Origin: Pseudomonas alcaliphila JAB1
GTDB taxonomy: Bacteria > Pseudomonadota > Gammaproteobacteria > Pseudomonadales > Pseudomonadaceae
DNA length: 64,000 bases
Reading direction: 5' to 3'
Assembly (NCBI RefSeq): GCF_001941865.1
Contig: NZ_CP016162.1
Span: 2,232,001-2,296,000, forward strand
Part shown: positions 45,411 through 62,104 of the stretch, in pieces
Layout of the letters: every line of letters begins with the position of its first letter
Numbering within the stretch: position 1 is the stretch's first letter
Notes under the pieces: generated by a model
Databases searched by the model: none
Told to the model about the DNA's origin: nothing
Seen by the model: the letters and a program-made list of their open reading frames with translations, nothing else
Position numbers and translations under genes: made by a program

Positions 45411-45411
45411 A

Positions 45412-47383: not shown

Positions 47384-48763
47384 ATGAACAACGCCGTAAA
47401 CAACCCCAAGACCGCGCACTGGCAGGCCCTGAGCCAGGCCCACCATCTGGCCCCGTTCAGTGATTACAAGCAGCTGGCCGAGAAGGGCCCGCGCATCATC
47501 ACCGAGGCAAAAGGCGTGCACCTGTGGGACAGCGAGGGCAACAAGATCCTCGATGGCATGGCCGGTCTGTGGTGTGTGGCCGTCGGCTATGGCCGCGAGG
47601 AGCTGGTCGAAGCTGCCGCTACGCAGATGCGCCAGTTGCCGTTCTACAACACCTTCTTCCAGACCGCCCACCCGCCGGTGCTGGAGCTGGCCCATGCCAT
47701 CTCCCAGCTGGCGCCGGCCGGCATGAATCACGTGTTCTTCACCGGTTCGGGCTCGGAGGGTAACGACACCATGCTGCGCCTGGTACGCCACTACTGGGCG
47801 TGCAAGGGGATGCCTGCGAAGAAGATCATCATCGGTCGCGAGAATGGCTACCACGGCTCCACCGTGGCTGGCGCCAGCCTTGGTGGCATGAAGTTCATGC
47901 ACGAGCAGGGCGACCTGCCGATTCCGGGCATCGCCCATATCCCGCAGCCGTACTGGTTCGGTGAAGGTGGCGATATGAGCCCGGAAGCCTTCGGCATCTG
48001 GGCCGCTGACCAGTTGGAGAAGAAGATTCTCGAGTTGGGTGAAGAGAATGTCGCGGCGTTCATCGCCGAGCCGATCCAGGGCGCCGGCGGCGTGATCATC
48101 CCGCCAGAAACCTACTGGCCGCGTATCAAGGAAATCCTCGGTAAGTACGACATCCTCTTCGTCGCCGATGAAGTGATCTGCGGTTTCGGCCGTACCGGCG
48201 AGTGGTTCGGCAGCCAGTACTACGACCTCAAACCTGACCTGATGACCATCGCCAAGGGGCTTACCAGCGGCTACGTGCCGATGGGCGGGTTGATCGTCAG
48301 CGACAAGGTGTTCGAGGTGATCGCGGCGCACGGCGATTTCAACCATGGCTTCACCTATTCCGGCCATCCGGTGGCGGCAGCGGTGGGCCTGGAGAACCTG
48401 CGCATTCTCAAGGAAGAAGGCATCGTCGAGCGGGTGAAGGCAGAAACGGCACCCTACCTGCAAAAGCGCCTGCGTGAGCTGGCAGATCACCCGCTGGTGG
48501 GTGAAGTGCGCGGCGTCGGCATGCTTGGCGCCATCGAGTTGGTGCAGGACAAGGCCACGCGCAAGCGCTTCTCCGGTGATGTGGGCGTGGGCATGGTCTG
48601 TCGCGGCCACTGCTTCAATAACGGTCTGATCATGCGCGCCGTGGGCGATACCATGATCATTGCGCCCCCTCTGGTGATCAGCCTTGCCGAGATCGACGAG
48701 CTGGTGGAAAAGGCGCGTAAGTGCCTGGATCTGACCTGGGAGCAGGTGCGTAGCGCTGTGTAA
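47384..48763 (+). CDS. spuC: Polyamine:pyruvate aminotransferase SpuC
   Basis: A 459-residue class III aminotransferase. PLP lysine lies in MTIAKGLTSGYVPMGG (about residue 288), with VADEVICGFGRTGEW and FIAEPIQGAGGVI. The whole N-terminus (NNPKTAHWQALSQAHHLAPFSDYKQLAEKGPRII) is nearly diagnostic of pseudomonad SpuC, which transfers the amino group of putrescine, spermidine or related amines to pyruvate. AAGGAGG precedes the ATG. Ends at a strong terminator. Confidence 0.92.
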   Translation: MNNAVNNPKTAHWQALSQAHHLAPFSDYKQLAEKGPRIITEAKGVHLWDSEGNKILDGMAGLWCVAVGYGREELVEAAATQMRQLPFYNTFFQTAHPPVLELAHAISQLAPAGMNHVFFTGSGSEGNDTMLRLVRHYWACKGMPAKKIIIGRENGYHGSTVAGASLGGMKFMHEQGDLPIPGIAHIPQPYWFGEGGDMSPEAFGIWAADQLEKKILELGEENVAAFIAEPIQGAGGVIIPPETYWPRIKEILGKYDILFVADEVICGFGRTGEWFGSQYYDLKPDLMTIAKGLTSGYVPMGGLIVSDKVFEVIAAHGDFNHGFTYSGHPVAAAVGLENLRILKEEGIVERVKAETAPYLQKRLRELADHPLVGEVRGVGMLGAIELVQDKATRKRFSGDVGVGMVCRGHCFNNGLIMRAVGDTMIIAPPLVISLAEIDELVEKARKCLDLTWEQVRSAV

Positions 48764-48770
48764 GCAGCAA

Positions 48771-48846
48771 TTCGTGGCTGAAGCCGCTCCTACGCGAAGA
48801 CTGCATCTGTAGGAGCGGCTGGGCGGCATTCCGCTTCAGCCGGGAG
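48771..48846. repeat. REP-like elements, GTAGGAGC family
   Basis: CGTGGCTGAAGCCGCTCCTAC is followed by GTAGGAGCGGCTGGGCGG and a decayed CGCTTCAGCCGG end: one complete and one partial unit directly after spuC. Confidence 0.7.
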
Positions 48847-48864
48847 GGACGATGATCAAAAGAA

Positions 48865-48900
48865 AACCCCGCCACCGGTAACGGTGGCGGGGTTTGGTTT
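48865..48900 (+). terminator. Rho-independent terminator of the polyamine operon
   Basis: CCCCGCCACCG and CGGTGGCGGGG form a perfect stem around GTAA, followed by TTTGGTTTTT. It ends transcripts from the 44121-48763 operon. Confidence 0.88.
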
Positions 48901-49067
48901 TTCAGCCGCTTACTCGAGGCTATTGTTCGGCGCTCGGGCGACACGATCCAGCGCGGTGCGCACCGCTTGCCCTGGTCATCTCTGGCCGGCCACGACCGGC
49001 AGCAGCCACTCGCTTCAATGCAAGAACCCTGTGCACTGGGCTCCGGCAACCGCCAAGGATCCATGGC

Positions 49068-49922
49068 TCAGGAATGCGGGTAACTGTCCACCACCCGCTG
49101 GTACTGGCTCGGCGAGGCGCCGATATGGTGCTTGAAGAAACGCGTGAAATGCCCCTGCTCGGAGAACCCCAACGACTCGGAAAGCAAGCCCAGGGTGCCA
49201 TTACGCTCGCTGTCGAGCCAGGAAAAGGCACGCCGCATCCTCGCCGCGTTGAGCAGCAGGTTGGGTGTCATGCCGGTGTCCTTGCGAAACAGGGAATAGA
49301 AGTGCGCGCGTGACAGACCACAGCATTTGGCCGCATTGTCGATTGGCGCCGGGTCATCCAGGTGATTGAGCAAATAGTCGGTACCTTTGCGCACCCGCGC
49401 GTCGCGGTATTCATTGACGGTGCGAACGCCCATCCGACAGAGATGCCGCCACTGCGAGGAGTCTTCGATCAACTGGATGAGGAAGTCGAACAAGTAAAAC
49501 TCGATACGCTCCTGTGGAACCAGGTCGGGGCTGTGCATTTCAGCAATCAAGCGATCCGCCAGATTGCGGTTTTGCGTGCCCAGTTCCATGGAGGATTGCG
49601 CAAAAAAGTCTGGACGACTGCTTAAGGCTAGCGACTGTTGCGCGGTGGCCAGCCAGGCCGGCTCGATATACAGAGCCAGAATCAAGGTATTGCCGGCACC
49701 TGCCTGATAATCGAAATAATGCGGTTCCCAGGCGTTGACCAAGACCGCATTGCGGTCAGTCAGCGGCACCTGACGGCCGCGCACGTTGAAGAAGGTGTCG
49801 TCGCCCGCCACTTTCACCAGCACATGGCATTCCGAATGGGTATGCATGACCAAGGGTTTATTCATGTTCAACAAGGCAACTCGGCCAAAGTTGCCATGAA
49901 ATACGCGTTGTGCGACCGACAT
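49068..49922 (-). CDS. AraC-family regulator beside the furoate genes
   Basis: A 284-residue regulator: N-terminal cupin sensor (HTHSECHVLVKVAGDDTFFNVRGRQV, about residues 27-52) and C-terminal tandem HTH (IDNAAKCCGLSRAHFYSLFRKDTGMTPNLLLNAARMRRA, then LLSESLGFSEQGHFTRFFKHHIGASPSQYQ). It is the only regulator adjacent to the hmf, oprD and xdhC genes, so it is the first candidate activator of that region. AraC-type activators of furoate and HMF genes are known in other bacteria. No conserved site is seen upstream of it. Confidence 0.85.
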   Translation of the reverse strand: MSVAQRVFHGNFGRVALLNMNKPLVMHTHSECHVLVKVAGDDTFFNVRGRQVPLTDRNAVLVNAWEPHYFDYQAGAGNTLILALYIEPAWLATAQQSLALSSRPDFFAQSSMELGTQNRNLADRLIAEMHSPDLVPQERIEFYLFDFLIQLIEDSSQWRHLCRMGVRTVNEYRDARVRKGTDYLLNHLDDPAPIDNAAKCCGLSRAHFYSLFRKDTGMTPNLLLNAARMRRAFSWLDSERNGTLGLLSESLGFSEQGHFTRFFKHHIGASPSQYQRVVDSYPHS

Positions 49923-49935
49923 AGGCAGTTCTCCC

Positions 49936-50211
49936 TCATCCGCTGGATGAGCGTTGTCCGCAGCGCTTGGTTCTATCTGCGCCGTCTTGGAAAATTTCTC
50001 TCGGGGCGGTTAGCCGGAGGTCGGCAGGCGTATCGATATCCTGGTGGATACCTGAATCCTCCACGTCGACCCTCACGCAGGACGCCGCTTGCTCACCGCT
50101 ATCGAGTTGCCGCAGCGCTGGCCAGCAATCTTGGCCAAACAACAGCGGATGTCCTGAGTAGCCTCGATAGCGCGGCTGAGCAATATTTGACCAATTCAGC
50201 TTGGCGCACAA
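49936..50211 (-). pseudogene. Remnant of molybdenum cofactor cytidylyltransferase (MocA-like)
   Basis: The reading frame preserves the C-terminal signature of MocA-type nucleotidyltransferases: PRYRGYSGHPLLFGQDCWPALRQL, then VDVEDSGIHQDIDTPADL. The N-terminal nucleotide-binding half is missing, and about ten residues seem lost between GEQAAS and CVRVDVED. It begins about 30 bases after the xdhC-like stop, the normal place for mocA. The activity must come from another locus if the molybdenum enzyme is functional. Confidence 0.7.
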
Positions 50212-50241
50212 GTACCTCTTAGTCGTAGCGCAATGACCTGA

Positions 50242-51213
50242 TCACAAGGCATGACGCTCCCTGCCGTGGTATACGCGCAGGACATCCGCCATTACCGCCA
50301 GGGCTATTTCCGCCGGCGCCTTACTGCCCAGATCCAGACCGATGGGCATGTGCAGGCGCGCGATCTGCTCGTCGGACAGGCCGCCAACGCGCTTGAGCCG
50401 CTCGGCGCGCTTGGCCGAGGTGGCCTGCGAGCCCATGGCGCCAATGTAGAACGCCGGGGTGCGCACCGCCTCCATCAGGGCCAGGTCGTCGATACGCGGA
50501 TCGTGGGTCAACGCCACCACTGCGGTGGCGGCGTGGCAGCCGCCAGCAGCGATAAACAGCGAGGGCAGCACGCGCTGCATCTGTACGCCGTCGAGCACGA
50601 TGTGCTCGACCTCCTCGCGGGGGTCACAGGCGATCACTTCGCAGCCGATGGCGCGGGCAAAAGCGGCGCAGGCCTCGGCCACCGGGGAGAGCCCGGCGAG
50701 AATCAGGCGCAGCACCGGGCCGACATGAATGCGCACCGTTTCATCGACGACTTGCACCCGTTCGCTACCCTGAACGGCGTCCGGATCCAGGCGCAGCGCA
50801 CCACTGCCAAGGTCGACATGACGCACCAGGCGATGCTGGCCGAGCAAGGCCGCCTGCAGGGCTTGCAGGTGCTCGATCCACTCGCAGCTGGGCGCGCGGT
50901 GTTCCACCAGCACCACCAGCACCCCACCGCACGGCAAACGCAGGCGCCGACTCTCCTCGGCGCTGTCGCCGTAGCGGACAATCTGCGCCGGCTCGCGCAG
51001 CTCGCCACGGGCCAGGCTGGCGAGGAACTCTTCCTCGACACAGCCGCCGGAGAGTGAACCGACATGTTCACCAGCAGCGCTGGCCACCAGCATCGCCCCC
51101 GGCGCGCGCGGCGCCGAGCCATAGGTCGAGAGGACCGTACAGAACCACAACGCACGACCGGCATGGGCCCAGTCGAGCGCCTGGCTGACAACCTGTAGAT
51201 CGAGATGGCGCAT
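50242..51213 (-). CDS. XdhC/CoxI-like molybdenum-enzyme maturation protein
   Basis: A 323-residue protein with an N-terminal XdhC-CoxI domain (LVASAAGEHVGSLSGGCVEEEFL near residues 48-70, LPCGGVLVVLVE near 100) and a C-terminal Rossmann XdhC domain (LILAGLSPVAEACAAFARAIGCEVIACDPR). It would bind and sulfurate molybdenum cofactor for insertion into the hydroxylase encoded at 58159. ATG at 51213 fits the family start. An element similar to one before hmfA lies about 200 bases upstream. Confidence 0.87.
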   Translation of the reverse strand: MRHLDLQVVSQALDWAHAGRALWFCTVLSTYGSAPRAPGAMLVASAAGEHVGSLSGGCVEEEFLASLARGELREPAQIVRYGDSAEESRRLRLPCGGVLVVLVEHRAPSCEWIEHLQALQAALLGQHRLVRHVDLGSGALRLDPDAVQGSERVQVVDETVRIHVGPVLRLILAGLSPVAEACAAFARAIGCEVIACDPREEVEHIVLDGVQMQRVLPSLFIAAGGCHAATAVVALTHDPRIDDLALMEAVRTPAFYIGAMGSQATSAKRAERLKRVGGLSDEQIARLHMPIGLDLGSKAPAEIALAVMADVLRVYHGRERHAL

Positions 51214-51328
51214 GCTTCCAGTACCTCGTAGAGCCGCTATCACCCGTGTCTTCACAGGGGAGGCAGCAGACGCGAACTTGCCCGTTTCGCACTTGTCCAG
51301 GCATGCACTGGTGCGGGAAATCCCCGGT

Positions 51329-51342
51329 GACGCCTGCGTTTT
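51329..51342. promoter_or_regulatory. GACG-N3-GCGTTTT motif upstream of the xdhC-like gene
   Basis: GACGCCTGCGTTTT lies 116-129 bases upstream of the start. GCGTTTTGTCGTT (51336-51348) is repeated exactly before oprD at 53124-53136. Confidence 0.5.
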
Positions 51343-51403
51343 GTCGTTGCTGCGTTTTATCAGCCGTCCGCCGGATGGTCAGGTTACGGCACACAATGGC
51401 GCA

Positions 51404-51464
51404 CGCCTTGCCAACCCAATGGAATATTGGTCTTTACGTCCGCCGATTTGCCTTTTCGTCTAAA
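51404..51464. promoter_or_regulatory. 61-base element shared with the hmfA upstream region
   Basis: Starts CGCCTTGCC and continues through ATAT, TACGTC and TTGCCTTTT to GTCT. The stretch aligns without gaps to 61231-61291 upstream of hmfA at roughly two thirds of positions. The two TTGCC blocks suggest a double binding site. Confidence 0.6.
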
Positions 51465-51542
51465 TAAGGGCGGCTTGGCGAATAAAAAGGCTATGTCCCT
51501 GTTAGCTGTTGCTGGGGCGCTCCAAGAAAGGCTCGGAGCCTT

Positions 51543-51613
51543 GTAGGGTGGGCCGGGCGGCGATCCGCTTTAGCCCACGCCAACCACCGCTGGTGGGCAA
51601 AAGCCCACCCTAC
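51543..51613. repeat. REP-like element, GTAGGGTGGG family
   Basis: GTAGGGTGGGCCGGGCGGCGA at left is opposed by GGTGGGCAAAAGCCCACCCTAC at right. It lies in the 498-base gap between oprD and the xdhC-like gene. I see no gene in that gap. Confidence 0.75.
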
Positions 51614-51655
51614 GGGCCTTTGCACCCATTCCCAACACTTAACGCAGACATAGCC

Positions 51656-51682
51656 AATAAAAAAGGCCCGCGAGAGCGGGCC
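51656..51682 (-). terminator. Rho-independent terminator after oprD
   Basis: Read leftward: GGCCCGC, TCTC, GCGGGCC then TTTTTTATT. It lies 30 bases past the porin stop and closes the hmf-benE-oprD transcription unit. Confidence 0.85.
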
Positions 51683-51711
51683 AAGCCATCACCCGGGATA
51701 CCGGGGAGGGC

Positions 51712-53010
51712 TCAAAACAAAGTCAGGCTGTAGCTGAGGATCAGTCGGTTCTCGTCGATGTCGCTGCGGTAGTTGGAACGCGCCGTAACGTTGCGCACAC
51801 GTACGCCAACGCCCTTGAGTGCACCGTTCTGCACGGTGTATCCGATATCCAGGTCGCGCTCCCAGTCCTTGCCCTCGTAGCGCGCACCGCCGCGGTTGGT
51901 GGCCTGGGCATCGACGTTGTCGCCGCGGATATAGCGCACCCCGGCCACCAACCCGGGCATGCCCATGGCGGCGAAGTCATAGTCGTAACGCGCCTGCCAG
52001 GAACGCTCGTCGGCTGAGGCGAACTCGAATGTCGGCACCTCGTTGCCCAGCGGCGCGATGTTGGCGAATACCCGTGGGAAGGCGCTGTCGCCGAACATGG
52101 CCTGGTAGCCAACATAGAAGGTATGCCCGCCGTGCTTGGCCGACAGCAGGGAGAAGAACGCCTGGTTGTCGATGTCGCCGAGCAAGCGGTCGCCGTCCTC
52201 ACTGGCGTCGTAGAAACCGAGGTTGGCACCCAGGGTCCAGTCGCCCAGCGGCTCGCTGTGCTTGAGGCCGATGAAGCGCTGGTTGTAGATGTCCTCCAAC
52301 TCGCCGTACCAGGCGCTGGCGGTGGTGCGGCTGGCGTTGAAGGCGTAGTCAGCGCCGGCATAGTTGAAGGCGTCGCTGCGGGCGGCGCGCTGCGGCAGAT
52401 GGCCGAGGGTGGCCAGCATCTTGTCGTCGCCGGCCTCGTTGCGCAGGCTGGTGGAGTTGAGGTGGCCGGCCTGCAGGGTAAGCCCGGCGATCTCGTTGGA
52501 GACCAGGCTGGCACCCTGGTAGCTCGGCGGCAGCAGGCGGATGTCGCTGAAGGCCAGCACCGGCAGGTTGGGCTGCAGCTCGCCGACCTTCAGCTCGGTC
52601 TGCGACAGCTTGACCTTCAAGGCGGCGCCCAGGCGGCTGTAATCGTCGGCGGCCTTGCCGCCCTCGCGGGTCGGCAACAGGCCGGTGTTGACCCGATCCG
52701 CGCTGCTATCGAGCTTGAGGCCGAGCAGACCGATGGCATCCACGCCGAAACCGACGGTGCCCGGGGTGTAGCCGGATTTGAAGTTGAGGATGAAACCCTG
52801 CGCCCACTCCTCGGCCTTGGACTGCTGGTTCGGCCCGACGATGTCGGAGAAGTCGCGACTGAAGTAGTAATTGCGTGCTTGCAGGGTTGCCGTGGCGTCC
52901 TTGAAAAAATCGCTGTCGGCCGCCAAAACCTGGAACGGCAACCCCAGCAGCAAACCGGTGTAGACCAGGCAACGGGTGGCTTTGCATAGGCGAGTTAAGG
53001 TAAAGGTCAT
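51712..53010 (-). CDS. OprD-family outer-membrane porin
   Basis: A 432-residue porin: signal peptide to AADSDFF (near residue 30), then the OprD start [21 protein letters not shown], a [16 protein letters not shown] loop and a C-terminal strand ending LSYSLTLF with the terminal Phe. Members take up organic acids and amino acids one class at a time. Downstream of benE and the hmf genes, it probably lets furoate or a similar acid cross the outer membrane. An AATAAGAA motif precedes the start, and a GACG-N3-GCGTTTT motif lies further upstream. Confidence 0.9.
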
Positions 53011-53116
53011 AGTTGTGAGCTCTCTTTCTTATTCGATTTCTAGGCACAAGAATTCCCACGGGCCTCTTGCAGGTCCATGTGTGGCAGTGGGAACTCTCGA
53101 GGGGTACAGCGTTTAA

Positions 53117-53130
53117 GACGTGCGCGTTTT
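53117..53130. promoter_or_regulatory. GACG-N3-GCGTTTT motif upstream of oprD
   Basis: GACGTGCGCGTTTT lies 107-120 bases upstream of the porin start and continues into GTCGTT, the same 13 bases as upstream of the xdhC-like gene. It may mark an internal promoter for oprD. Confidence 0.5.
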
Positions 53131-53158
53131 GTCGTTACTCGGCGAGGGCCACGCGACT

Positions 53159-54400
53159 CTAGGCGGCCCGCTCTCGGTGCAACTCGCCGAGTACCCAGGA
53201 CACCGCCACGCCGATCACCAGCGCCCAGAACGGCGCGCTGATACCGAACAGGCTGAACTTGCTCATGGCCACCACCAGGGCGACGAATGCACCGATCTGG
53301 CAACCGGTGTCTTTGTGGAAGGCCTGCTGCAACGAGCTGAGCAACACGCCGATCATCGCCAGGCCGGCGATCACCAGGATCAACTCACGCGGCAAGGCGA
53401 GGATGAACGGCACGGCGATACCGGCGAATACGCCAAACAGGGCGAACAGCACGCCATTGACCAGGGTCGCCCCGTAGCGTTGACGCGGATCGTCGCCGGC
53501 CTGCTCGGAACCGCAGATCGCCGTCATCGGCCCGGCGATATTGGCGTTGTGTCCGCCCAACAGCCCGGCCAGCATGCCGCCCACGCCGCTCACCACGGTC
53601 ATCGCATTGACCGGAGGCTTGTAGCCCTCGACCATCAGCACACCGGTGGCCTGGGCATTCTCGGCACCGATTACCAGCGCCGCCAGCGGCACCGATATGG
53701 CAAAGAAGGTCTCCAGGGTGAACATGGGCGTGGTGAAAGCCGGCATGACGAAGGCGATGTCCACATCCGCCGGTTTCAGCAGGCCCAGAGCCAGGGCCGC
53801 GGCGAAGCCCACCAGCCCGGCAGCCAGCACCGGCGGCACCGCCTTGAAGAAGCGCATGACCAGGAAGTAGGTCAGCGCCGCCAGACCGGCCATTAGCGGA
53901 ACGCTGCCGACCGCTTCTACCGCACCGACGCCGAAGCGGATCATCGCCCCGGCGATCATCGCCATGACGATGGGCATCGGCAGCCAGCGCATCAACTTGC
54001 CGATCACCCCGCTCAAGCCGAGCAGCAAGACCAGCGCGCCGCTCATGATGAAAGCGCCGACCGCCTGGCGAAAATCCAGACCGGCAAGTGCCGCGATCAT
54101 GATCGCCGCGCCAGGAATCGAATAAGCGCCGCAGATCGGCTGACGGTAGCGCAGCGCCATGCCGATGCTGATCAGTCCGCCGAGCACGTAGATGGCGAAT
54201 AGCCAGGCAACCGTCTGGCCATTGCTCAATTGGCCGGCTTCGGCGGCGCTGATGACGATCAGCGCCGGCCCGGAACAGCCGAACAGCGCGGCTACTACCC
54301 CGGCGCTGACCGACTTGAGGTTGATTGCCTCTCGGATTGAGTAGCCCGATGAGGCGTCGGAAGGTGGTGCAATATCAGTGTTCGCTTTTTTGCCAAGCAT
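53159..54400 (-). CDS. BenE-family aromatic acid/H+ symporter of the furoate region
   Basis: A 413-residue membrane protein with about 12 helices and the BenE motifs GAYSIPGAAIMIAAL, ISVPLAALVIGAENAQATGVLMVEGY and GGHNANIAGPMTAICGSEQAG. Between hmfE and oprD, it should import the pathway substrate across the inner membrane. An AACAACAA tract lies about 17 bases before the start codon. Confidence 0.87.
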   Translation of the reverse strand: MLGKKANTDIAPPSDASSGYSIREAINLKSVSAGVVAALFGCSGPALIVISAAEAGQLSNGQTVAWLFAIYVLGGLISIGMALRYRQPICGAYSIPGAAIMIAALAGLDFRQAVGAFIMSGALVLLLGLSGVIGKLMRWLPMPIVMAMIAGAMIRFGVGAVEAVGSVPLMAGLAALTYFLVMRFFKAVPPVLAAGLVGFAAALALGLLKPADVDIAFVMPAFTTPMFTLETFFAISVPLAALVIGAENAQATGVLMVEGYKPPVNAMTVVSGVGGMLAGLLGGHNANIAGPMTAICGSEQAGDDPRQRYGATLVNGVLFALFGVFAGIAVPFILALPRELILVIAGLAMIGVLLSSLQQAFHKDTGCQIGAFVALVVAMSKFSLFGISAPFWALVIGVAVSWVLGELHRERAA

Positions 54401-54483
54401 GACCCGTTCTCCGCGATTGTTGTTGTAATGCGGTACAGCCGTTGTCTGCCGAGGCCTGCCGCAGGCAAGCCCCGGAGGGAAGG

Positions 54484-55287
54484 TTACTCGCCGCGGAATA
54501 CCGCCGGCCGCTTGCTGTGGAACGCCTCGACGCCTTCCTTGAAGTCATGCGAGCTGCGCAGGCGGCTGTAGCAATGGCCTTCCATCTCGATGGCCACGCT
54601 CAGCGGCGCGTCTTCGTTGTCGTTGATCAAGCGCTTGGCCGTGCGCTGGGCCAGCGGCGAGAAGCGCCGCAGTTCATCGACCAGCGCGTCTACCGTGCTT
54701 TCCAGCTCGGCGTCCGCCACGCACTCGGTGGCGATGCCCCAGTCGTAGGCCTGTTCGCCGCTGATGCGCTTGGCGCGCATGACCATGTGCTTGGTGCGGG
54801 CCACGCCGATGATCTTCTGCAGGCGCGCCGAACCACCGGAGCCGGGGATCTGCCCGAGATTCTGCTCGGGCAATGCGTAGCGAGTGGTCTCCGAGGCGAT
54901 GCGGAAATCGCAGGCCAGCGACAGCTCGAAACCGACGCCGAAGGTGTAGCCACGGTTGGCGGCAATCACCGGCTTCTCGCAGCGCACCGGCGCGGCGACG
55001 TTCCAGGCCAGCTTGGAGACGTGCTCCGGCGAGGCCTCGAGGAAGCCCTTGATGTCGCCGCCGCTGGAGAAGTGCTCGCCCACCGCGCGCAGCACGATGA
55101 CGCGCACCTGCGGATGAGCGTCAAGCGCTTCGAAGACCTGGCGCAACTGGTCGCGCTGGCCCATGGAGATGACGTTAAGCGGCGGGCGGTTGAGGATGAT
55201 GTCGGCGCGCTCACGGGCCGCATCGACCTCGACCTGGAAGCCGTCGAACGGGGTTTCGAGAAATTGCTGGATCGCTTGCAGTTGCAT
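54484..55287 (-). CDS. hmfE: Enoyl-CoA hydratase-fold enzyme, probable 2-oxoglutaroyl-CoA hydrolase
   Basis: A 267-residue crotonase-fold protein: NRPPLNVISMGQRDQLRQVF, oxyanion-hole region EHFSSGGDIKGF (about residues 70-81) and YTFGVGFELSLACDFRIASE with LPEQNLGQIPGSGGSARLQ. Position after the CoA ligase matches hmfE, whose product opens the 5-hydroxyfuroyl-CoA lactone and/or releases 2-oxoglutarate from its CoA ester. The assignment rests mainly on gene order; a plain enoyl-CoA hydratase would look similar. Confidence 0.75.
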   Translation of the reverse strand: MQLQAIQQFLETPFDGFQVEVDAARERADIILNRPPLNVISMGQRDQLRQVFEALDAHPQVRVIVLRAVGEHFSSGGDIKGFLEASPEHVSKLAWNVAAPVRCEKPVIAANRGYTFGVGFELSLACDFRIASETTRYALPEQNLGQIPGSGGSARLQKIIGVARTKHMVMRAKRISGEQAYDWGIATECVADAELESTVDALVDELRRFSPLAQRTAKRLINDNEDAPLSVAIEMEGHCYSRLRSSHDFKEGVEAFHSKRPAVFRGE

Positions 55288-55314
55288 GATGGATGTCCTT
55301 GGGATGGTGAGCGT

Positions 55315-56847
55315 TCAGCCTTTTTGGGCCTGTTCCTGGTGCTGGGCCAGCAAGACGCGGCGCAGCACCTTGCCAACGGGGGATTTGGGAATTTCGTCGA
55401 TGAACTGGTAACGCCGCGGTCGCTTGAACTTGGCCAGGCCGGAGGTGATGCAGTGGGCATCCAGTTCGCTTTCGCTGACTTCGGCACGCAGCTTGATGAA
55501 GGCGGCGATGATCTTGCCCCACTGCTCGTCCGGCAAACCGACCACCACCACTTCCTCGACGGCGGAGTGCAGTGAGAGCACGTTCTCGATCTCCACCGGG
55601 CTGATGTTCTCGCCGCCGGTGATGATCAGGTCGTCCACCCGTCCGGTGACAAACAGGTCGCCGTCCTCATCGAAATAGCCGGTGTCACCGGTGAAATACC
55701 AGCCTTCGCGCAACGCCTTGGCCGTGGCTTCGGGGCGGTTCAGGTAGCCTTCGAACGCCTCGTCGCTGGCCAGGTCGGCGACGATCTGGCCTTCTTCCAT
55801 GGGCTTGGCTTGCACCTGTGCCGATTCGGCGTCGATCGGCACCACCCGCACCCGTTGGTTCAGCGCGCTGCGCCCCGAGGAGCCTGGCTTGCGGTTGGCC
55901 TGCTGGTCGATGGTGAAGGTATAGATCTCCGAGCTGCCGTAGTGGTTGACGAACAACTGCGGCTGGAACGCCTGCTCGACGCGGCGCATCAGCCCGTCGC
56001 TCATGGGTGCGCCGGCGAAGCCGATTTTCTCCACGCTGGCGACCCGTTCGCGGGCGAAGGCCGGGTGCTCGATAAGCATGTGATAGAGGGTCGGCACCAA
56101 GTACAGGTTGCTGACCTGTTCCCGTTCGATAGCTTCCAGGGTGGCCTCGACGTCGAACTTCGGCACGCAGACGAAATGCCCGTCGATCAGCGCCATGGCC
56201 AGCAGCGAACGCACGCCCATGGTGTGGTACAGCGGCATCACGCCGAGGGTGCACTCGCCGTGGTAATAGAGGTTCTGCGCCACATGGGCGACCGCCGCGG
56301 CGCGTTCCGCGCGGTGCCGGCGCGGCACGCCCTTGGGCTTGCTGGTGGTGCCGGAGGTATAGAGCAGCAGGGAGAAATCCTCGGGCGTGGCGCGCAGGAT
56401 GGTCGCCGTCGGCGCCTCTGCGCACAGCTCGGCGAAGCTCAGGTCGCCGTCCGCGGCGCGCTGACCCGCGGCGATCCGCGGCAGATTGAGCGCGGCCGTG
56501 CAGGCAGCGACCGCGGCCACGGTGGAATCGTCGTAGGCCACTGCGCGGATCTGCGCATCCTCGATGCAGTAGGCCAACTCCTCGGCAGTCGAGCGCCAGT
56601 TCAGCGGGGTCATGACGATGCCGGCGAACTGGCAGGCCCAATGCAGGGTCGCCATCTGCCAGCGGTTCTGCATGGCCACCAGCAGGCGATCACCCCTGCC
56701 CAGCCCGAGTGACTCGAGGCCGTGGGCAGCACACTGGATATCGGCGAACCACTGTTCGTAGGTTTTTTTCACTGTGCCGTCGCTGACCGCAGTGGCCAGC
56801 GGGCGGCGTTCCACGGCAGCGAGGAAGCTGCGTCCGAGATCGAACAT
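55315..56847 (-). CDS. hmfD: Acyl-CoA ligase, probable 2-furoate:CoA ligase
   Basis: A 510-residue AMP-forming ligase. P-loop LLLYTSGTTSKPKGVPRRH (about 163-181), YGSSE (about 295), TGDTGYFDEDGDLFVTGRVDD (about 382) and the C-terminal catalytic lysine in PKSPVGKVLRR (about 495). Substrate groups in this family include benzoate and furoate; the neighbours favour furoate. ATG at 56847 overlaps the stop of the 2Fe-2S gene (TAATG), giving coupling. AACAATAA at the start codon is a Crc/Hfq-type motif. Confidence 0.8.
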   Translation of the reverse strand: MFDLGRSFLAAVERRPLATAVSDGTVKKTYEQWFADIQCAAHGLESLGLGRGDRLLVAMQNRWQMATLHWACQFAGIVMTPLNWRSTAEELAYCIEDAQIRAVAYDDSTVAAVAACTAALNLPRIAAGQRAADGDLSFAELCAEAPTATILRATPEDFSLLLYTSGTTSKPKGVPRRHRAERAAAVAHVAQNLYYHGECTLGVMPLYHTMGVRSLLAMALIDGHFVCVPKFDVEATLEAIEREQVSNLYLVPTLYHMLIEHPAFARERVASVEKIGFAGAPMSDGLMRRVEQAFQPQLFVNHYGSSEIYTFTIDQQANRKPGSSGRSALNQRVRVVPIDAESAQVQAKPMEEGQIVADLASDEAFEGYLNRPEATAKALREGWYFTGDTGYFDEDGDLFVTGRVDDLIITGGENISPVEIENVLSLHSAVEEVVVVGLPDEQWGKIIAAFIKLRAEVSESELDAHCITSGLAKFKRPRRYQFIDEIPKSPVGKVLRRVLLAQHQEQAQKG

Positions 56848-57353
56848 TATTGTTGTACCTCTTCGTTCGTTTGGCGTTGGGCAGCCACTTCCAGCACTGC
56901 CTGGACAATGCCGGTGTAACCGGTACAGCGGCACAGGTGCCCAGAAAGCATGTCGCGCACTTCGGCCTCGCTCGGGTCGGGCTGCCGCTCGAGGAAATCC
57001 ACGCAGGACATGAGGATGCCCGCAGTGCAGAAACCGCACTGCAGGGCGTGATGACGGCGGAACGCCTGTTGCAGGTCGCTCAGCGTGTCGTCGTCGGCCA
57101 GCGATTCGACTGTCTCGATGCGCCGCTCGTGGGCCTGCACGGCGAGCATCAGGCAGGAACGCACGGCGACGCCGTCCACCAGCACCGTGCAGGCGCCGCA
57201 GACGCCGTGTTCGCAGCCGACATGGACGCCGGTGGCGCCGAGGTCGTGGCGCAGGAAATCGCACAGCTGGGTACGCGGCTCGGCCAGGCCTTCGCGCGAG
57301 CGGCCATTGAGCTCGAGACGGACGGGAAAACGTTGTTCGGCGGTTGCGCGCAT
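56847..57353 (-). CDS. hmfC: Furoyl-CoA dehydrogenase 2Fe-2S subunit
   Basis: A 168-residue small subunit of a molybdenum hydroxylase. The N-terminal plant-type 2Fe-2S cluster is [15 protein letters not shown] with a fourth Cys in VRSC; the second cluster uses CGFCTAGI and CRCTGYTGI. It passes electrons from the molybdenum site to FAD. It is preceded by the FAD subunit two bases away. ATG at 57353 fits the family start. Confidence 0.85.
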
Positions 57354-57355
57354 GT

Positions 57356-58162
57356 TCAGACTCCTTCGATGAGCCGGTGACCCAGCTCGCGAATCAGTTG
57401 CCGGCGGTAGGCCGCGCTGGCGTGTACATCGTCCTGGGCGTCGAGCGACCAGGCGGTTTCGTTGAGCGCGTCGGCCAGCGCCGGGCCGCGCGGCAGGCTG
57501 CGCATCACCGGGCGGTCGGCGACCCCGCCGACGCCCAGGCGCACCTCGTCGGTGCCGACACAGGCGGCCAGCGAGACGATGGCGAAGTCGCCGTGGCGCA
57601 TGGCGATTTCCCGGAAGCGGTAGCCGATGCCCTCGCGTTTGAGCGGGAAGCGCACCTCGACGAGCAGTTCGTCGGCGCGTTTGTCGGTGGTGAGAATGCC
57701 CTGGAAGAACTCGGCGGCCTTGACCACGCGCTTGCCCTTCTTCGACTCCAGGACGATCTCGCCGCCCAAGGTCACCAGGCACAGCGGCAGCTCGGCGCTG
57801 GGGTCGGCGTGGGCCACCGAACCGCACACGGTGCCGCGGTTGCGGATCTGGAAGTGGCCGATCCAGGGCATCGCCAGGGCCAGCAGCGGCACCTCGTCGA
57901 CCAGCGTCGGCCGCGCCAGCAGTTGCGCCTGGCGCACCGCCGCGCCAACCGCCAGGCAATCCTGGCGCAGCTCGATATAGTTCAGGTCGGCGACCTGGTT
58001 GATGTCGATCAGCAGCTTGGGCTGGGCCAGGCGCATGTTCAGCACCGCCATCAGCGACTGCCCGCCGGCAATGATGCGCGCATCCGCGCCATACTCGGCG
58101 AGCAGCTCGAGCACCTGGCGGCGGCTCTCGGCACGGACGTAATCGAAGGCAGCCGGTTTCAT
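57356..58162 (-). CDS. hmfB: Furoyl-CoA dehydrogenase FAD-binding subunit
   Basis: A 268-residue medium subunit: IIAGGQSLMAVLNMRLAQPKLLIDI (FAD motif, about 29-53), then GNRGTVCGSVAHADPSAELP-type FAD contacts and the C-terminal CO-dehydrogenase flavoprotein domain (FREIAMRHGDFAIVSLA). Its ATG overlaps the stop of the molybdenum subunit. Enzyme order large-medium-small matches hmfABC. Confidence 0.85.
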   Translation of the reverse strand: MKPAAFDYVRAESRRQVLELLAEYGADARIIAGGQSLMAVLNMRLAQPKLLIDINQVADLNYIELRQDCLAVGAAVRQAQLLARPTLVDEVPLLALAMPWIGHFQIRNRGTVCGSVAHADPSAELPLCLVTLGGEIVLESKKGKRVVKAAEFFQGILTTDKRADELLVEVRFPLKREGIGYRFREIAMRHGDFAIVSLAACVGTDEVRLGVGGVADRPVMRSLPRGPALADALNETAWSLDAQDDVHASAAYRRQLIRELGHRLIEGV

Positions 58163-61161
58163 TGCGCACCTCCCTTGCCGAACAGCCCGGCGAACAGCGC
58201 ACGCAGACGGCTCCACCAGCCAGCGGCGATCGCCTGGCCACTGACCCGCTGCGACAGGCGGGTGAAAATCTGTCCGATGATCACTTTCGAGGCCCCTTGC
58301 ATCATGCGGCTGCCGACCGCGGCGACCTTGCCGCTGACGGCGACCTGGTATTGGTATTCCAGGCGCGTGTGACCGTTCTCCAAGGCGACGAAACGCACCC
58401 TGGCGTGGCCCTCGGCCGAGCCCATGGAGCTGGTGCCGGAGCCGGACAGGCGTAACGAATGCGGTGGGTCCAGCTCGCTCAAGGCGACCTTGGCCTCGAA
58501 GCGTGCGCGGATCATGCCGACGCCGACGGTGACGTCCGCGCGGTAGCGATTCTCGCCCTGCAGTTCGAGGGCATGGCAGCCGGGGATGATCGCCGCCAGG
58601 GTGGCCGGGTCGAGCAGGGTGTCGAACACCTGCTGTGGCGGCGCCGGGATCACCACCGCATCGTTGGCGCGCAGGGCCGAACCAGCGGCCGGCTCTGCGG
58701 CGAAACCGTCGTCCTGCTGCATGCCAGCCGGCCGCGGCGGCTCGTCGATGCCGATCATGCTGCGCACCTTCGAGGGGGTCAGCGGCAGGCGGATGTCGGC
58801 GCGGCCGAGAGCATCGGCCACGGCGTTGGCGATGCATACCGGCGTGCTCATGTTGTTGCCCTCGCCGACGCCCTTGGCCCCCAGGGGGGTGAACGGCGAC
58901 GGTGTTTCCAGATGCAGGATCACCGGCTCGAGCACTTCCGGTGCAGTGGGCACCAGGTAGTCGGCGAAGGTTCCAGAGAGGAAGCTGCCGTCCTCGCCAT
59001 AGGCGAACTCTTCCATCAGCGCCGCGCCAAGCCCCTGGGTAAAGCCGCCGCGGATCTGTCCGTCGACCAGCGCGGGATTGAGCAGGCGGCCGGCATCGTG
59101 GCAGGTCACGTAGCGGTCGAGGTGAATCGCGCCGGTGACGCGGTCGATCTCCAGGCCACAGATGTCGAAGACGAAGCCGTAGCACAGCGAGCTGTTGATG
59201 TGATCGTCGTCGTCCGGCGCCATGAGCTGCGGCGGGCTCCAGAATGCGGTCTCGCGCAGGCCGCCCGGTTCGCCTTGCGGGAGCAGGCCAGGCGTCCAGT
59301 GGGTAGCGCCGGCGATGCGGTGAAAGGCTGCAGAAGGACCGCCGTTGGCGACGAAGATCTTGCCGCCGCCGAAGCGGATGTCCTCCGGTTTGGCTTGCAG
59401 TTGCGCGGCGGCGATCGCGGCGAGGCGATCGCGTACCTTCAGCGCGGCCTGGTAAACCACCCCGGCCACCGCGCCGGCGAAGCGGCTGGAATAGTTGCCC
59501 GAGGCGATCGACCAGGCATCCTTCTGGGTGTCCAGTTCGACGTTGACCACGATCGATTCCAGCGCCACGCCGAGCACATCGGCGACTATCTGCGCCACCG
59601 CGGTCTGGTGCCCCTGGCCCTGGGGCGTCGAGGAGACGTGCACGCTGACGTCGCCGAGCGGGCCGACGTTGATGGTCGCCGTGCTCACCGCACCGTTCTT
59701 CGGCCCGGCCTTGCGCCGTTCCTCGGGCATCATCGCAGTGGTGATGTAGCCCATGTTGGAGATCGACGGCTCGATCACCGCGGCATAGCCGATGCCATAC
59801 AGCCGGCCTTCGCCGCGCGCCTGGTCGCGGCGGCGCAGCAACTCGTCGAGACCGCCGTCCTTGACCGCCAAATCGATGCCGGCCTGGTAATTGCCGGAAT
59901 CCAGCAGAGCGCCGGCCGCGGCACGGTAGGGGAAGGCGTCGGCCGGCACCAGGTTGCGGCGGATCACCTCCAGCGGATCGAGATCCAGCTGCACGGCGAT
60001 ATGCTGCAACAGACGCTCCAGGGCGAAGTACACCTGCGGGCCGCCGAAGCCTCGGTTTAGGCCGGTGGGGGTCTTGTTGGTCAGCACCACGCGGTTGCGC
60101 ACCAGCAGGTTACGAATCGCGTAGGCACCCGTGAGGTTGCCGTGCATGCGGTAGAAGGTGGCCGGCTCCGGTGCGCGCAGGTAGGCGCCGCAGTCGTCGA
60201 TCTGGTCATAGCGCAGGGCGGTGATGCGACCGTCGGCCTGCACCGCCGCCTCGATTTCGGTGACCCGATTGGTCGCGGAGGACGCGCCTTGCAGATGCTC
60301 GAGGCGGTCTTCGACCCATTTCACCGGGGCTCCGACCTTGCGTGCCGCCAGTCCCATCATCACCACGTAGGGGAACACGCCCTGTTTGATCCCGAAGCTG
60401 CCGCCGGAGTCTTTCGGCGTGCGCAGACGCAGGCGGTTGCTCGGCACGTTGAGCGCGCGGGCCATCACCGTGTGCAGCGCATAGGGTCCCTGGAAGTTGG
60501 CCAGCACGTCGTAGATGCCGGTGGCGCGTTCGTACTGGGCAAGCACCACGTAGCATTCGATGGGAGTGCAGGAGCTGCGCGGAAAGCTCACCTTCAGCGA
60601 GACCCGGTGCGGCGCCTGCGCGAAGGCTTGTTCCGGTTCGCCGTAGCGGAAATGCCGCTCGTTGACCACGTTGCTGCCGACTGCCTCATGCAGCACCGGC
60701 GCCTGTTCGGTGGTGGCGGCCTCCGGGTCGATGATCGGCGGCAGCGGCTCATAGTCGACACGTACGCCTTCCAGGGCGTCTTCGGCCAGGTAACGGCTCT
60801 CGGCGATCACGACCGCCACCGGCTCGCCGACGTAGCGCACCTTGTCCACGGCGATGCACCAATGCTCCATCGGCTGGCGCACGCCGACCGGGAATGGCAG
60901 GGCCCAACGCTTGATGTCCTCACCGATGAGTACGCCGTGCACGCCTTTCATCAGCAGCGCTTTGGAGAAGTCCACGGCAGTGATGCGCGCATGGGGATGG
61001 GGTGAACGGACAATGGCCGCGTGCAGGGTACCGGGCGGGGTGGCCGCATCGTCGGCATAGCAGCCCAGGCCACGCAGCAATGCAGCATCCTCGACACGGG
61101 TCTGACGAGCGCCGATATGGCCGCTGTGCTGGGTAACGGGGTCAGGCTGATATAGGTTCAT
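58159..61161 (-). CDS. hmfA: Furoyl-CoA dehydrogenase molybdenum subunit fused to a CoxG domain
   Basis: A 1000-residue protein. Residues about 20-810 are a xanthine-oxidase-family molybdenum subunit: GRGCYADDA-type N-domain, KDSGGSFGIKQG, LNRGFGGPQVYFALE, GQGHQTAVAQIVAD and the base-bearing GAKGVGEGNN. It lacks the AYxCSFR loop of true CO dehydrogenase. Residues about 831-1000 are a CoxG/SRPBCC domain (VVIPAPPQQVFDTLLDPATLAAIIPGC) normally encoded as a separate gene. It would hydroxylate furoyl-CoA at C5. ATG at 61161 with GAGAAG upstream; a GTG one codon earlier is possible. Confidence 0.82.
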   Translation of the reverse strand: MNLYQPDPVTQHSGHIGARQTRVEDAALLRGLGCYADDAATPPGTLHAAIVRSPHPHARITAVDFSKALLMKGVHGVLIGEDIKRWALPFPVGVRQPMEHWCIAVDKVRYVGEPVAVVIAESRYLAEDALEGVRVDYEPLPPIIDPEAATTEQAPVLHEAVGSNVVNERHFRYGEPEQAFAQAPHRVSLKVSFPRSSCTPIECYVVLAQYERATGIYDVLANFQGPYALHTVMARALNVPSNRLRLRTPKDSGGSFGIKQGVFPYVVMMGLAARKVGAPVKWVEDRLEHLQGASSATNRVTEIEAAVQADGRITALRYDQIDDCGAYLRAPEPATFYRMHGNLTGAYAIRNLLVRNRVVLTNKTPTGLNRGFGGPQVYFALERLLQHIAVQLDLDPLEVIRRNLVPADAFPYRAAAGALLDSGNYQAGIDLAVKDGGLDELLRRRDQARGEGRLYGIGYAAVIEPSISNMGYITTAMMPEERRKAGPKNGAVSTATINVGPLGDVSVHVSSTPQGQGHQTAVAQIVADVLGVALESIVVNVELDTQKDAWSIASGNYSSRFAGAVAGVVYQAALKVRDRLAAIAAAQLQAKPEDIRFGGGKIFVANGGPSAAFHRIAGATHWTPGLLPQGEPGGLRETAFWSPPQLMAPDDDDHINSSLCYGFVFDICGLEIDRVTGAIHLDRYVTCHDAGRLLNPALVDGQIRGGFTQGLGAALMEEFAYGEDGSFLSGTFADYLVPTAPEVLEPVILHLETPSPFTPLGAKGVGEGNNMSTPVCIANAVADALGRADIRLPLTPSKVRSMIGIDEPPRPAGMQQDDGFAAEPAAGSALRANDAVVIPAPPQQVFDTLLDPATLAAIIPGCHALELQGENRYRADVTVGVGMIRARFEAKVALSELDPPHSLRLSGSGTSSMGSAEGHARVRFVALENGHTRLEYQYQVAVSGKVAAVGSRMMQGASKVIIGQIFTRLSQRVSGQAIAAGWWSRLRALFAGLFGKGGAQ

Positions 61162-61175
61162 CACACTTCTCGCGT

Positions 61176-61183
61176 TTATTGTT
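61176..61183 (-). promoter_or_regulatory. Crc/Hfq-type motif in the hmfA leader
   Basis: AACAATAA read on the minus strand, 15 bases before the hmfA ATG and just before the ribosome site. It fits the AAnAAnAA catabolite-activity motif, one of eight such sites at catabolic starts in this window. Confidence 0.55.
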
Positions 61184-61230
61184 GTGCGCGATTGACTCGT
61201 AAAGAAGAGTATGGATCCCGACCAGCCGGC

Positions 61231-61291
61231 CGCCTTGCCCGGGCCTATGAATATCTGCCTGTACGTCAGTTGGCTTGCCTTTTAGTCTGAT
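61231..61291. promoter_or_regulatory. 61-base element upstream of hmfA
   Basis: CGCCTTGCC, then ATAT, TACGTC, TTGCCTTTT and GTCT at the same spacings as in 51404-51464. It lies 70-130 bases before the hmfA start, where an activator would bind. Confidence 0.6.
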
Positions 61292-61299
61292 GCGGTGAA

Positions 61300-61313
61300 G
61301 ACGGCGGCGTTTT
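61300..61313. promoter_or_regulatory. GACG-N3-GCGTTTT motif upstream of hmfA
   Basis: GACGGCGGCGTTTT, 139-152 bases upstream of hmfA. Third occurrence of the motif also seen before oprD and the xdhC-like gene. The rest of the 468-base gap up to ohr shows no convincing gene. Confidence 0.45.
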
Positions 61314-61632
61314 TCCGGACGCGCTTTGGTCTGGGCAATGCCGCTTGGGCTGGCTCGGTAGGTTGTCGAGCGCTCATCTGCATCACCTTGGTGTCCACCA
61401 GGATGCCGGACAGGTTCACAAGGGGCAGTTCTGGTTGCTGCTGGCGCTGGACAGCAGCTCGTGGGCGAGAGGTCATCTTCGCGGTGACCACTTTGCACCA
61501 GGGGCTGGCGGGTACGCCGATGGCAATCACCTTGGCGATATTCAGCGGCAAGCCGCAGCGATACTGGGGTGGTTGCGGTGTTCTCCTCTTGGGCCCGCTG
61601 ACGGCCTGGCCGTCAGCGGTCGCCCCTGGGGG

Positions 61633-62058
61633 TCAGACGATGGTCAAGGTGACGTCGATGTTGCCGCGGGTGGCGTTGGAATAGGGGCAGACGATGTGCG
61701 CGCGGTCCACCAGGGTCTGCGCCGCTTCGCGATCCAGGCCCGGCAGGCTGATGCGCAGCTCCACTTCGATGCCGAAGCCGGTGGGGATCGGACCGATGCC
61801 CACGGTGCCTTCGATAAAGGTGTCGGCCGGGATGCTCAGCTTGTCGCGGGCGGCGACGAACTTCAGGGCGCCGAGGAAGCAGGCCGAATAGCCGGCGGCG
61901 AACAGTTGTTCCGGGTTGGTGCCATTGCCGCCGGCGCCGCCGAGTTCCTTCGGCGTGGTCAGGGCGATGTCCAGTACGCCGTCGGAGGAGACGGCGCGGC
62001 CCTCACGGCCGCCGAAGGCTTCAGCGGTAGCACGGTAGAGAACGTTTTCGATGGTCAT
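61633..62058 (-). CDS. ohr: Organic hydroperoxide reductase Ohr
   Basis: A 141-residue OsmC/Ohr-family peroxidase with both redox cysteines: Cys60 in [12 protein letters not shown] and Cys124 in [13 protein letters not shown]. It reduces organic peroxides using lipoylated proteins. It is followed upstream, on the same strand, by a 41-residue exported peptide and the ohrR regulator gene, so this is an ohr-ohrR locus. Confidence 0.93.
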
Positions 62059-62104
62059 GGCGGTATTCCTCTTCAGATGCGATGGGGGCGTAGGGATGCG
62101 TCGC

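What the first reader, a model, noticed from the sequence alone, without database searches (positions are those of the whole stretch)
49068..61161. Probable complete 2-furoate catabolic region with its own uptake and metal-enzyme maturation genes
The order molybdenum subunit, FAD subunit, 2Fe-2S subunit, CoA ligase, crotonase-fold enzyme is the hmfABCDE order of furoate degraders. Here it is followed on the same strand by a BenE symporter and an OprD porin, and flanked by XdhC and an AraC regulator. The seen facts are the domains and order; the substrate is inferred.
Basis: partly seen in the sequence, partly recalled or inferred. Interest (0 to 1): 0.7.

Follow-up and report, generated by a model that had tools for sequence, protein, structure and literature searches.

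The report
Furoate-degradation gene island (hmf)
This is a transferred set of genes for eating 2-furoic acid, already known from a close relative; its central enzyme carries an overlooked extra domain that may plug it directly into the cell's respiratory membrane.

Summary
The genes are real and the furoate reading holds, but it is not new. The order hmfABCDE-benE-oprD-xdhC-araC lies on the minus strand at 49068-61161, inside an insert of about 12.7 kb that three same-genus genomes lack. The same locus between the same neighbours is published for Ectopseudomonas oleovorans (P. pseudoalcaligenes) CECT 5344, which grows on furoate after a lag and, once adapted, needs this AraC to use furfural (PMC6678421). 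The window's AraC has Arg at position 261, as in the active form. "Complete" is too strong: the 'hyd' hydrolase is absent and mocA survives only as a remnant. CoxG links CO dehydrogenase to membrane and quinone, so HmfA may carry its own electron outlet. (2) A tandem operator CAGAC-N5-GGYAA precedes hmfA in 25 of 43 AraC-linked loci and 0 of 31 loci with only LysR. Core verdict firm; the quinone role is inference.

The parts
48903..61628 (.). Extent of the insert relative to three hmf-free relatives (the part without any match in G225 or G271 is a little shorter, about 48967-61373)
   Evidence: Window 48902 and 61628-61632 lie 10, 10 and 16 bp apart in G012, G278 and G088, between the aminotransferase terminator and ohr; G225 and G271 keep pieces like 48857-48966 and 61374-61580.
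49068..49922 (-). araC, regulator; Arg at residue 261
   Evidence: HTH_18, HTH_AraC, AraC_binding; R at this column in 45 of 45 aligned rows.
49990..50285 (-). mocA remnant (molybdenum cofactor cytidylyltransferase; middle part missing, pieces in different frames)
   Evidence: C-terminal 88 residues 67-74% identical to the full-length MocA of L017, plus 22 N-terminal residues in another frame; the L017 protein best matches TIGR03310 MocA, below its cut-off, and PF12804 above it.
50242..51255 (-). xdhC (psfD), molybdoenzyme maturation factor; true start may lie some codons downstream of the GTG
   Evidence: XdhC_CoxI and XdhC_C.
51665..51682 (-). Terminator-like hairpin after oprD
   Evidence: 7 G-C pairs then T-run; 10 such sites found in the scanned region against 7.7 expected in shuffles, so weak.
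51712..53010 (-). oprD-family porin; best solved matches 4ft6, OpdK (vanillate) and BenF-like
   Evidence: PF03573 E 4e-153; also follows benE in G311 and G105, 77% identical.
53159..54400 (-). benE-type symporter, probable furoate importer
   Evidence: PF03594 and TIGR00843 above cut-off; 66-97% identical to BenE of 11 other hmf loci, 38% and 31% to the two own-genome BenE copies that matched.
54484..55287 (-). hmfE, crotonase-fold enzyme; E121 and E141 invariant
   Evidence: ECH_1; both Glu in 79 of 79 rows.
55315..56847 (-). hmfD, 2-furoyl-CoA synthetase
   Evidence: AMP-binding; tree.
56847..57353 (-). hmfC, 2Fe-2S subunit
   Evidence: Fer2_2 E 2e-29.
57356..58162 (-). hmfB, FAD subunit
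   Evidence: FAD_binding_5 E 9e-45.
58159..61161 (-). hmfA, molybdenum subunit of 2-furoyl-CoA dehydrogenase, active-site Glu767
   Evidence: MoCoBD_1/2; Glu in 87 of 87 rows.
58240..58650 (-). CoxG domain fused to the C-terminus of HmfA
58681..58737 (-). Low-confidence linker between Mo part and CoxG domain
   Evidence: pLDDT < 50 at residues 809-827; linker 20-49 residues in 84 fused rows.
58183..58218 (-). C-terminal hydrophobic, basic tail helix (putative membrane contact)
   Evidence: Helix 982-993 in the model, at pLDDT of about 40-50; tail net positive in 83 of 83 rows.
61249..61290 (-). Predicted AraC operator: half-sites CAGACTAAAAGGCAA (from 61289) and CTGACGTACAGGCAG (from 61269), 20 bp apart
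   Evidence: Conserved block upstream of hmfA.

Best explanation
A horizontally acquired 2-furoate catabolic island. OprD lets furoate through the outer membrane and BenE imports it (inferred). HmfD makes 2-furoyl-CoA, HmfABC hydroxylates it at C5, and HmfE takes part in opening and hydrolysing the product to 2-oxoglutarate (steps described for hmf systems elsewhere; HmfE's exact step is inferred). XdhC matures the molybdenum enzyme; MocA function must come from elsewhere in the genome because the local mocA is a remnant. AraC, with furoate as probable inducer, activates hmfA from a tandem operator about 90-130 bp upstream of the start codon (predicted). HmfA's fused CoxG domain and tail tether the dehydrogenase to the inner membrane, so the two electrons from furoyl-CoA go via FAD to quinone rather than to NAD (inferred). 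The confidence given is for the furoate island; I hold the quinone-tether step at about 0.45-0.5.
For: Domains and order. Orthology to a cluster with hydroxymethylfurfural genes and correlated divergence of A-E. The published CECT 5344 locus with the same neighbours, growth on furoate and an AraC knockout. AraC R261. HmfD tree. hmf-linked BenE group. Operator in 25 of 43 AraC-linked against 2 of 40 other loci and 0.15-0.28% of single-base shuffles. CoxG fusion in 77 of 80; the only CoxG-family stretch found in this genome is the fused one. CoxG was proposed to recruit CO dehydrogenase to the membrane (PMC4240915) and is described as quinone-binding (PMC13240472, citing Kropp 2025). The PDB 8uds title speaks of a lipid-anchoring C-terminus.
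Against: Substrate not tested for this strain. No 'hyd' gene. The HmfD tree does not split HmfDs cleanly from the long-branched own paralogs (2 changes where 1 would be clean). 18 of 43 AraC-linked loci lack the operator pattern, most alphaproteobacterial ones among them. For the tether: three of 80 HmfA relatives lack CoxG. The helical moment of the tail is not above shuffles (28 of 83 rows at p <= 0.1; the window's own p is 0.87). CoxG was judged to anchor but not carry electrons in Sulfolobus G3PDH (PMC11962113), and coxG mutants of Oligotropha still grow on CO, slowly.
Confidence: 0.87

Rival explanations
1. The same enzymes act on a different five-ring heteroaromatic acid (for example thiophene-2-carboxylate or a substituted furoate), with furoate a side substrate.
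For: Substrate is inferred from homology only; no furoyl-CoA model is among the NCBIfam hits shown, and of those only the benE subfamily model reaches its cut-off.
Against: HmfA is 99% identical to that of E. oleovorans DSM 1045, and strain CECT 5344 of the same species grows on furoate with AraC dependence for furfural.
Confidence: 0.06
2. HmfABC is really an aerobic CO dehydrogenase or another xanthine-oxidase family enzyme, as some database names say.
For: Source names such as 'carbon monoxide dehydrogenase' for close homologs; best solved match is CoxL; CoxG domain.
Against: Scores far below the curated cut-offs (TIGR02416 412 against 991 bits). Linkage to CoA ligase and crotonase in 79 of 87 rows.
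Confidence: 0.02
3. The CoxG domain is only a membrane anchor or a folding aid; electrons pass from FAD to another acceptor.
For: Anchor-only conclusion for Sulfolobus CoxG (PMC11962113); coxG not needed for the CO dehydrogenase metal site and not essential for CO growth (PMC4240915); three of 80 HmfA relatives lack it.
Against: The fold is close to known CoxG proteins, which one survey describes as quinone-binding.
Confidence: 0.35
4. The island is present but cryptic here, as in wild-type CECT 5344.
For: mocA is a remnant; wild-type CECT 5344 shows a long lag put down to an inactive AraC.
Against: Window AraC carries the active-form Arg261; a full-length mocA homolog exists at G000:C1:1215000 (the search flags one TAG there, but the frame reads through the whole match); all catalytic frames are open.
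Confidence: 0.08

Closest known systems
hmf locus BN5_2298-BN5_2307 of Ectopseudomonas oleovorans (P. pseudoalcaligenes) CECT 5344 (PMC6678421)
   Same: Same flanking genes (osmC/ohr type and aminotransferase), hmfABCDE, benE, psfD (xdhC), araC; inserted at a site whose neighbours are consecutive in P. mendocina ymp.
   Different: The published wild type has Leu261 in AraC (inactive); the window has Arg. The sections I read do not mention an OprD, the CoxG domain or a mocA remnant. The paper reports mobile-element genes at the locus; here the two extra frames at the island ends that I scanned (61142-61498, 48678-49064) had no Pfam match, and I made no systematic search for such genes.
hmfABCDE of Cupriavidus basilensis HMF14 and Burkholderiaceae relatives (e.g. 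L004, L011)
   Same: Same gene order and the same HmfA-CoxG fusion in the Cupriavidus and Paraburkholderia loci examined; the paper gives 64% identity between C. basilensis and CECT 5344 HmfA.
   Different: MFS transporter in place of BenE and LysR regulators in place of AraC in L004 and L011; L011 also has UbiD, UbiX and GMC genes.
Pseudomonas umsongensis GO16 hmf-psf cluster (PMC12064950)
   Same: hmfABCDE, psfD, araC.
   Different: Its table lists hyd, hmfF, hmfT, hmfI, psfG, psfA, psfB, psfC; I identified none of these in the island, which has BenE and OprD instead.
CoxG of aerobic CO dehydrogenase
   Different: A separate protein in CO dehydrogenase systems, here fused to the molybdenum subunit.

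Membership tests
hmf 2-furoate catabolic cluster | Contiguous hmfA-B-C-D-E on one strand with the expected domains | tested here: met
hmf 2-furoate catabolic cluster | Catalytic genes orthologous to a cluster that also holds hydroxymethylfurfural genes | tested here: met
   56-76% identity to L011, which holds UbiD, UbiX and GMC genes.
hmf 2-furoate catabolic cluster | HmfD groups with HmfD, not with another acid ligase | tested here: met
   The window's HmfD lies in starred sets of 3, 9 and 12 rows, all HmfD, in a FastTree of 80 HmfD and 12 of the 13 own-genome AMP-binding paralogs. Caveats: no benzoate ligase of known function was included; the paralogs are long branches; the whole HmfD group is not one clean side of a branch.
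hmf 2-furoate catabolic cluster | Growth on 2-furoate and furoyl-CoA dehydrogenase activity | not testable with these tools
   Growth shown for CECT 5344 only (PMC6678421).
hmf 2-furoate catabolic cluster | Separate ring-opening hydrolase gene (hyd) | tested here: not met
   Not a defining feature: the L014 hydrolase has matches in 11 loci of the set, L014 included; none in the window, best own-genome match E 1e-5 over part.
Aerobic Mo-Cu CO dehydrogenase | Large subunit reaches the curated CODH cut-off | tested here: not met
   TIGR02416 412.4 against 991.15; NF040766 458.2 against 950.
CoxG (PF06240) | Profile match above gathering score | tested here: met
   87.1 against 22.2 bits.
CoxG (PF06240) | CoxG fold | tested here: met
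CoxG (PF06240) | Membrane-anchoring C-terminus | tested here: inconclusive
   Basic in 83 of 83 rows and hydrophobic motif in 77 of 83, but mostly not more amphipathic than shuffles; low model confidence.
CoxG (PF06240) | Quinone binding | not testable with these tools
   No ligand assay possible.

The most novel reading that the evidence does not exclude
2-Furoyl-CoA dehydrogenases are self-tethered respiratory enzymes: the CoxG domain fused to HmfA is a built-in quinone carrier or dock, so furoate oxidation feeds electrons straight into the quinone pool, and CoxG is a general output module that xanthine-oxidase family enzymes carry as a separate protein, on the molybdenum subunit, or on the 2Fe-2S subunit (all three arrangements were seen here).
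Probability: 0.45. Interest if true: 0.6.

Novelty: new member of a known kind. Interest (0 to 1): 0.38.

Why it matters
The pathway itself is known and useful for clearing furans from biomass hydrolysates. What could matter is the electron outlet of furoyl-CoA dehydrogenase: the sequence puts a CoxG domain on the enzyme in nearly all relatives examined, which turns the question of its electron acceptor into a one-domain deletion test. The predicted AraC operator gives a ready furoate sensor to test.

Tried and rejected
Considered and rejected: CO, xanthine or glyceraldehyde dehydrogenase identity for HmfABC (all NCBIfam scores shown are below cut-off). An amphipathic-helix claim for the HmfA tail: not better than shuffles in most rows, so only 'basic and hydrophobic' is claimed. 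Sigma-70 promoters: none found, 1.9 expected in shuffles. Repeats near the island ends: the search on 48700-51300, 51200-53100 and 61000-62100 gave only short two- or three-copy families and distant inverted pairs, apart from the terminator hairpin; I did not test for repeats shared between the two ends. A plasmid carrying the whole island: of 23 records with a match none covers 80%. Paper searches: 'furoyl-CoA' + 'CoxG' gave one paper, where the CoxG passages concern CO dehydrogenase; 'furoyl-CoA dehydrogenase' gave 8; 'furoyl-CoA' + 'electron acceptor' + 'molybdenum' gave one; 'furoyl-coenzyme' + 'electron' gave 7, listing only except PMC6678421. Koopman 2010, Koenig and Andreesen 1990 and Donoso 2021 are not held, so absence from print is not shown. 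The search for a furoate AraC promoter or biosensor held 1,021 papers with three of four terms; the 12 listed looked unrelated by title.

The protein search listed 120 of 6164 hits, all 120 with PF06240, but its query region included CoxG and so is biased. In the operator count four loci (L006, L007, L012, L013) were left out because the stretch held was too short to see an AraC gene, and loci with under 150 bp upstream were to be skipped. The pattern was chosen after looking at gammaproteobacterial upstream regions, so those rows are not independent; shuffles were of single bases. In the tail count L071 and the three unfused rows were left out. The HmfA tree is a FastTree run with long outgroup branches. 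In the BenE comparison one own-genome copy (L136) gave no match, perhaps because my script took a wrong frame.
Full report
WHAT IS THERE. The window lies in a 5.34 Mb single-contig genome at 2232001-2296000. On the minus strand from 61161 down to 49068 run hmfA, hmfB, hmfC, hmfD, hmfE, benE, oprD, xdhC and araC, each with its Pfam domain above cut-off. hmfA and hmfB overlap as ATGA, hmfC and hmfD as TAATG. HmfA is 99% identical to the protein of Pseudomonas oleovorans DSM 1045, so the host is probably a member of the Ectopseudomonas oleovorans group (inference).

IT IS AN ISLAND. In G012 and G278 the window's position 48902, just behind the terminator of a class-III aminotransferase, sits 10 bp from position 61629 or 61628, the end of ohr; in G088 the gap is 16 bp. 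Relative to these three the insert is about 12.7 kb (48903-61628). Two other same-genus genomes, G225 and G271, carry other sequence at the site, with pieces like window 48857-48966 and 61374-61580, so the true insert may be a little shorter. Base composition is uneven: 57% G+C around araC, 66-69% over hmfA to hmfC, as the paper also reports for CECT 5344. Across 298 genomes of the genus (own included), 17 carry hmfA over at least 2,900 bases, and one more (G297) carries part of it on two contigs: a patchy spread that fits transfer.

WHAT IS ALREADY KNOWN. PMC6678421 (introduction, first part of the results, discussion and legends read) describes the same locus in P. pseudoalcaligenes CECT 5344: hmfABCDE plus benE, psfD and araC between osmC and an aminotransferase, growth on furoic acid, furfural and furfuryl alcohol after a long lag, and a one-residue change in AraC (L261R, elsewhere written L262R) that removes the lag; inactivating that araC left the strain unable to use furfural (the abstract says it reverted to the original phenotype). 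The authors suggest benE as furoate transporter and note horizontal transfer. The window's AraC has Arg at residue 261 (assuming the same start), as do all 45 aligned rows, so it should be in the active form.

ORTHOLOGY. Against L011, a Paraburkholderia locus with UbiD, UbiX and GMC genes around hmfABCDE, identities are 63, 60, 66, 56 and 76% for A to E, and across 79 loci the five distance matrices correlate at r = 0.68-0.94. In a FastTree of 80 HmfD and 12 of the 13 own-genome AMP-binding paralogs (L105, a partial match, left out), the window's HmfD lies in well-supported sets of 3, 9 and 12 rows that are all HmfD; the whole HmfD group is not cleanly split from the long-branched paralogs (2 changes, of which supported branches force 1). 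Six of the 12 paralogs gave a BLAST match, none above 28% identity. The best-scoring solved relative is 4-chlorobenzoate:CoA ligase. HmfA keeps the family's active-site Glu (767; role recalled) in 87 of 87 rows. HmfE keeps two glutamates, E121 and E141, in 79 of 79; from memory these correspond to the catalytic pair of enoyl-CoA hydratase, so HmfE may add water in ring opening as well as cleave the thioester (inference).

NOT QUITE COMPLETE. P. umsongensis lists a putative ring-opening hydrolase, hyd (PMC12064950, one section and passages read). An alpha/beta hydrolase that I take to be it lies between the transporter and xdhC in L014 and has matches in 10 other loci of the set; it is absent from the window and its best own-genome match is E 1e-5 over part of the protein. 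Between xdhC and araC lies a broken mocA: 22 N-terminal and 88 C-terminal residues in different frames with the middle missing. A full-length homolog, 46% identical, lies elsewhere in the genome. E. oleovorans DSM 1045 also has only the C-terminal part beside araC.

UPTAKE. The window's BenE is 66-97% identical to the BenE of 11 other hmf loci (Pseudomonas, Stutzerimonas, Halomonas, Billgrantia, Salinicola, Alloalcanivorax, Jiella), but only 38% and 31% to the two own-genome BenE copies that matched; the third gave no match, perhaps through a wrong frame in my script. The OprD porin follows benE in G311 and G105 as well (77% identical) but is not found in L019 or L012. Its best solved matches are 4ft6, the vanillate porin OpdK and a BenF-like porin, ahead of porin D. 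Furoate specificity of either protein is not shown.

REGULATION. Upstream of hmfA a tandem element, CAGAC-N5-GGYAA (CGGAC allowed) with a second half-site 20 bp on, is present in 25 of 43 loci with a related AraC, 20 of them with a second CNGAY in place, and in 2 of 40 loci without one (L021, L024); 0 of 31 loci with only LysR regulators have it, and single-base shuffles give 0.15-0.28%. Paraburkholderia tagetis holds both kinds, an AraC locus with the element (L033) and a LysR locus without it (L041). In the window it lies at 61249-61290, about 90-130 bp before the hmfA start; the pattern occurs once more in the 64 kb, at 1378 on the plus strand. It was read first from gammaproteobacterial rows (13 of 15 have it), so the other rows are the better test: 12 of 28, namely L031, L033, L038, L039, L040, L051, L053, L054, L055, L059, L060 and L080; all alphaproteobacterial rows but L080 lack it. 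From memory, it resembles the tandem boxes of XylS.

WHAT COXG DOES. In Oligotropha, coxG mutants make active CO dehydrogenase but divide about seven times more slowly, and CoxG was proposed to bring the enzyme to the membrane (PMC4240915, passages). A 2026 survey calls CoxG a quinone-binding protein delivering electrons to the quinone pool, citing Kropp 2025, which I did not see (PMC13240472, passages). In Sulfolobus a CoxG-like protein anchors glycerol-3-phosphate dehydrogenase and was judged not to carry electrons (PMC11962113, passages). So a tether is well precedented and a quinone role is plausible but disputed. The HmfA tail is net positive in 83 of 83 rows and carries a hydrophobic-basic motif in 77 of 83, but its helical moment beats shuffles at p <= 0.1 in only 28 of 83.

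VERDICT. The finding is correct in outline, ordinary as a pathway, and already described for a close relative. Its interest rests on the fused CoxG domain and the operator. I found no mention of the first in the library searched, but key papers were not available to read.

Noticed in passing
window 49990-50285: Remnant of a molybdenum cofactor cytidylyltransferase gene (mocA) between xdhC and araC; the C-terminal part is also there in E. oleovorans DSM 1045 (L019); full-length frames in L017, L022, L023, L025.
   Followed up: yes
L109 1-2049 (genome of L078): CoxG domain in one open frame behind a 2Fe-2S subunit rather than a molybdenum subunit, with a hydrophobic basic tail.
   Followed up: partly
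L110 1-1989 (genome of L086): A second molybdenum subunit fused to CoxG in a genome whose hmfA lacks the domain.
   Followed up: partly
L019 9105-9526: In E. oleovorans DSM 1045 the ohr gene beside the island is split into two frames.
   Followed up: no
G105 contig C82, 3206 and 33377: Two hmfA copies on one contig, 94% and 83% identical to the window's; the first has the benE-oprD arrangement. By its length (53,185) the contig is that of L017, Pseudomonas borbori, whose xdhC, full-length mocA and closest araC lie between the two copies.
   Followed up: partly
window 16298-17425: A second, more typical BenE (515.6 bits) elsewhere in the window, only 31% identical to the hmf-linked one.
   Followed up: partly
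window 9355-10767: Ethanolamine ammonia lyase large subunit EutB.
   Followed up: no
window 44121-48763: DAO-family FAD oxidoreductase, glutamine-synthetase-like protein and class-III aminotransferase next to the island, the layout of a polyamine or amine catabolic set (function inferred).
   Followed up: no
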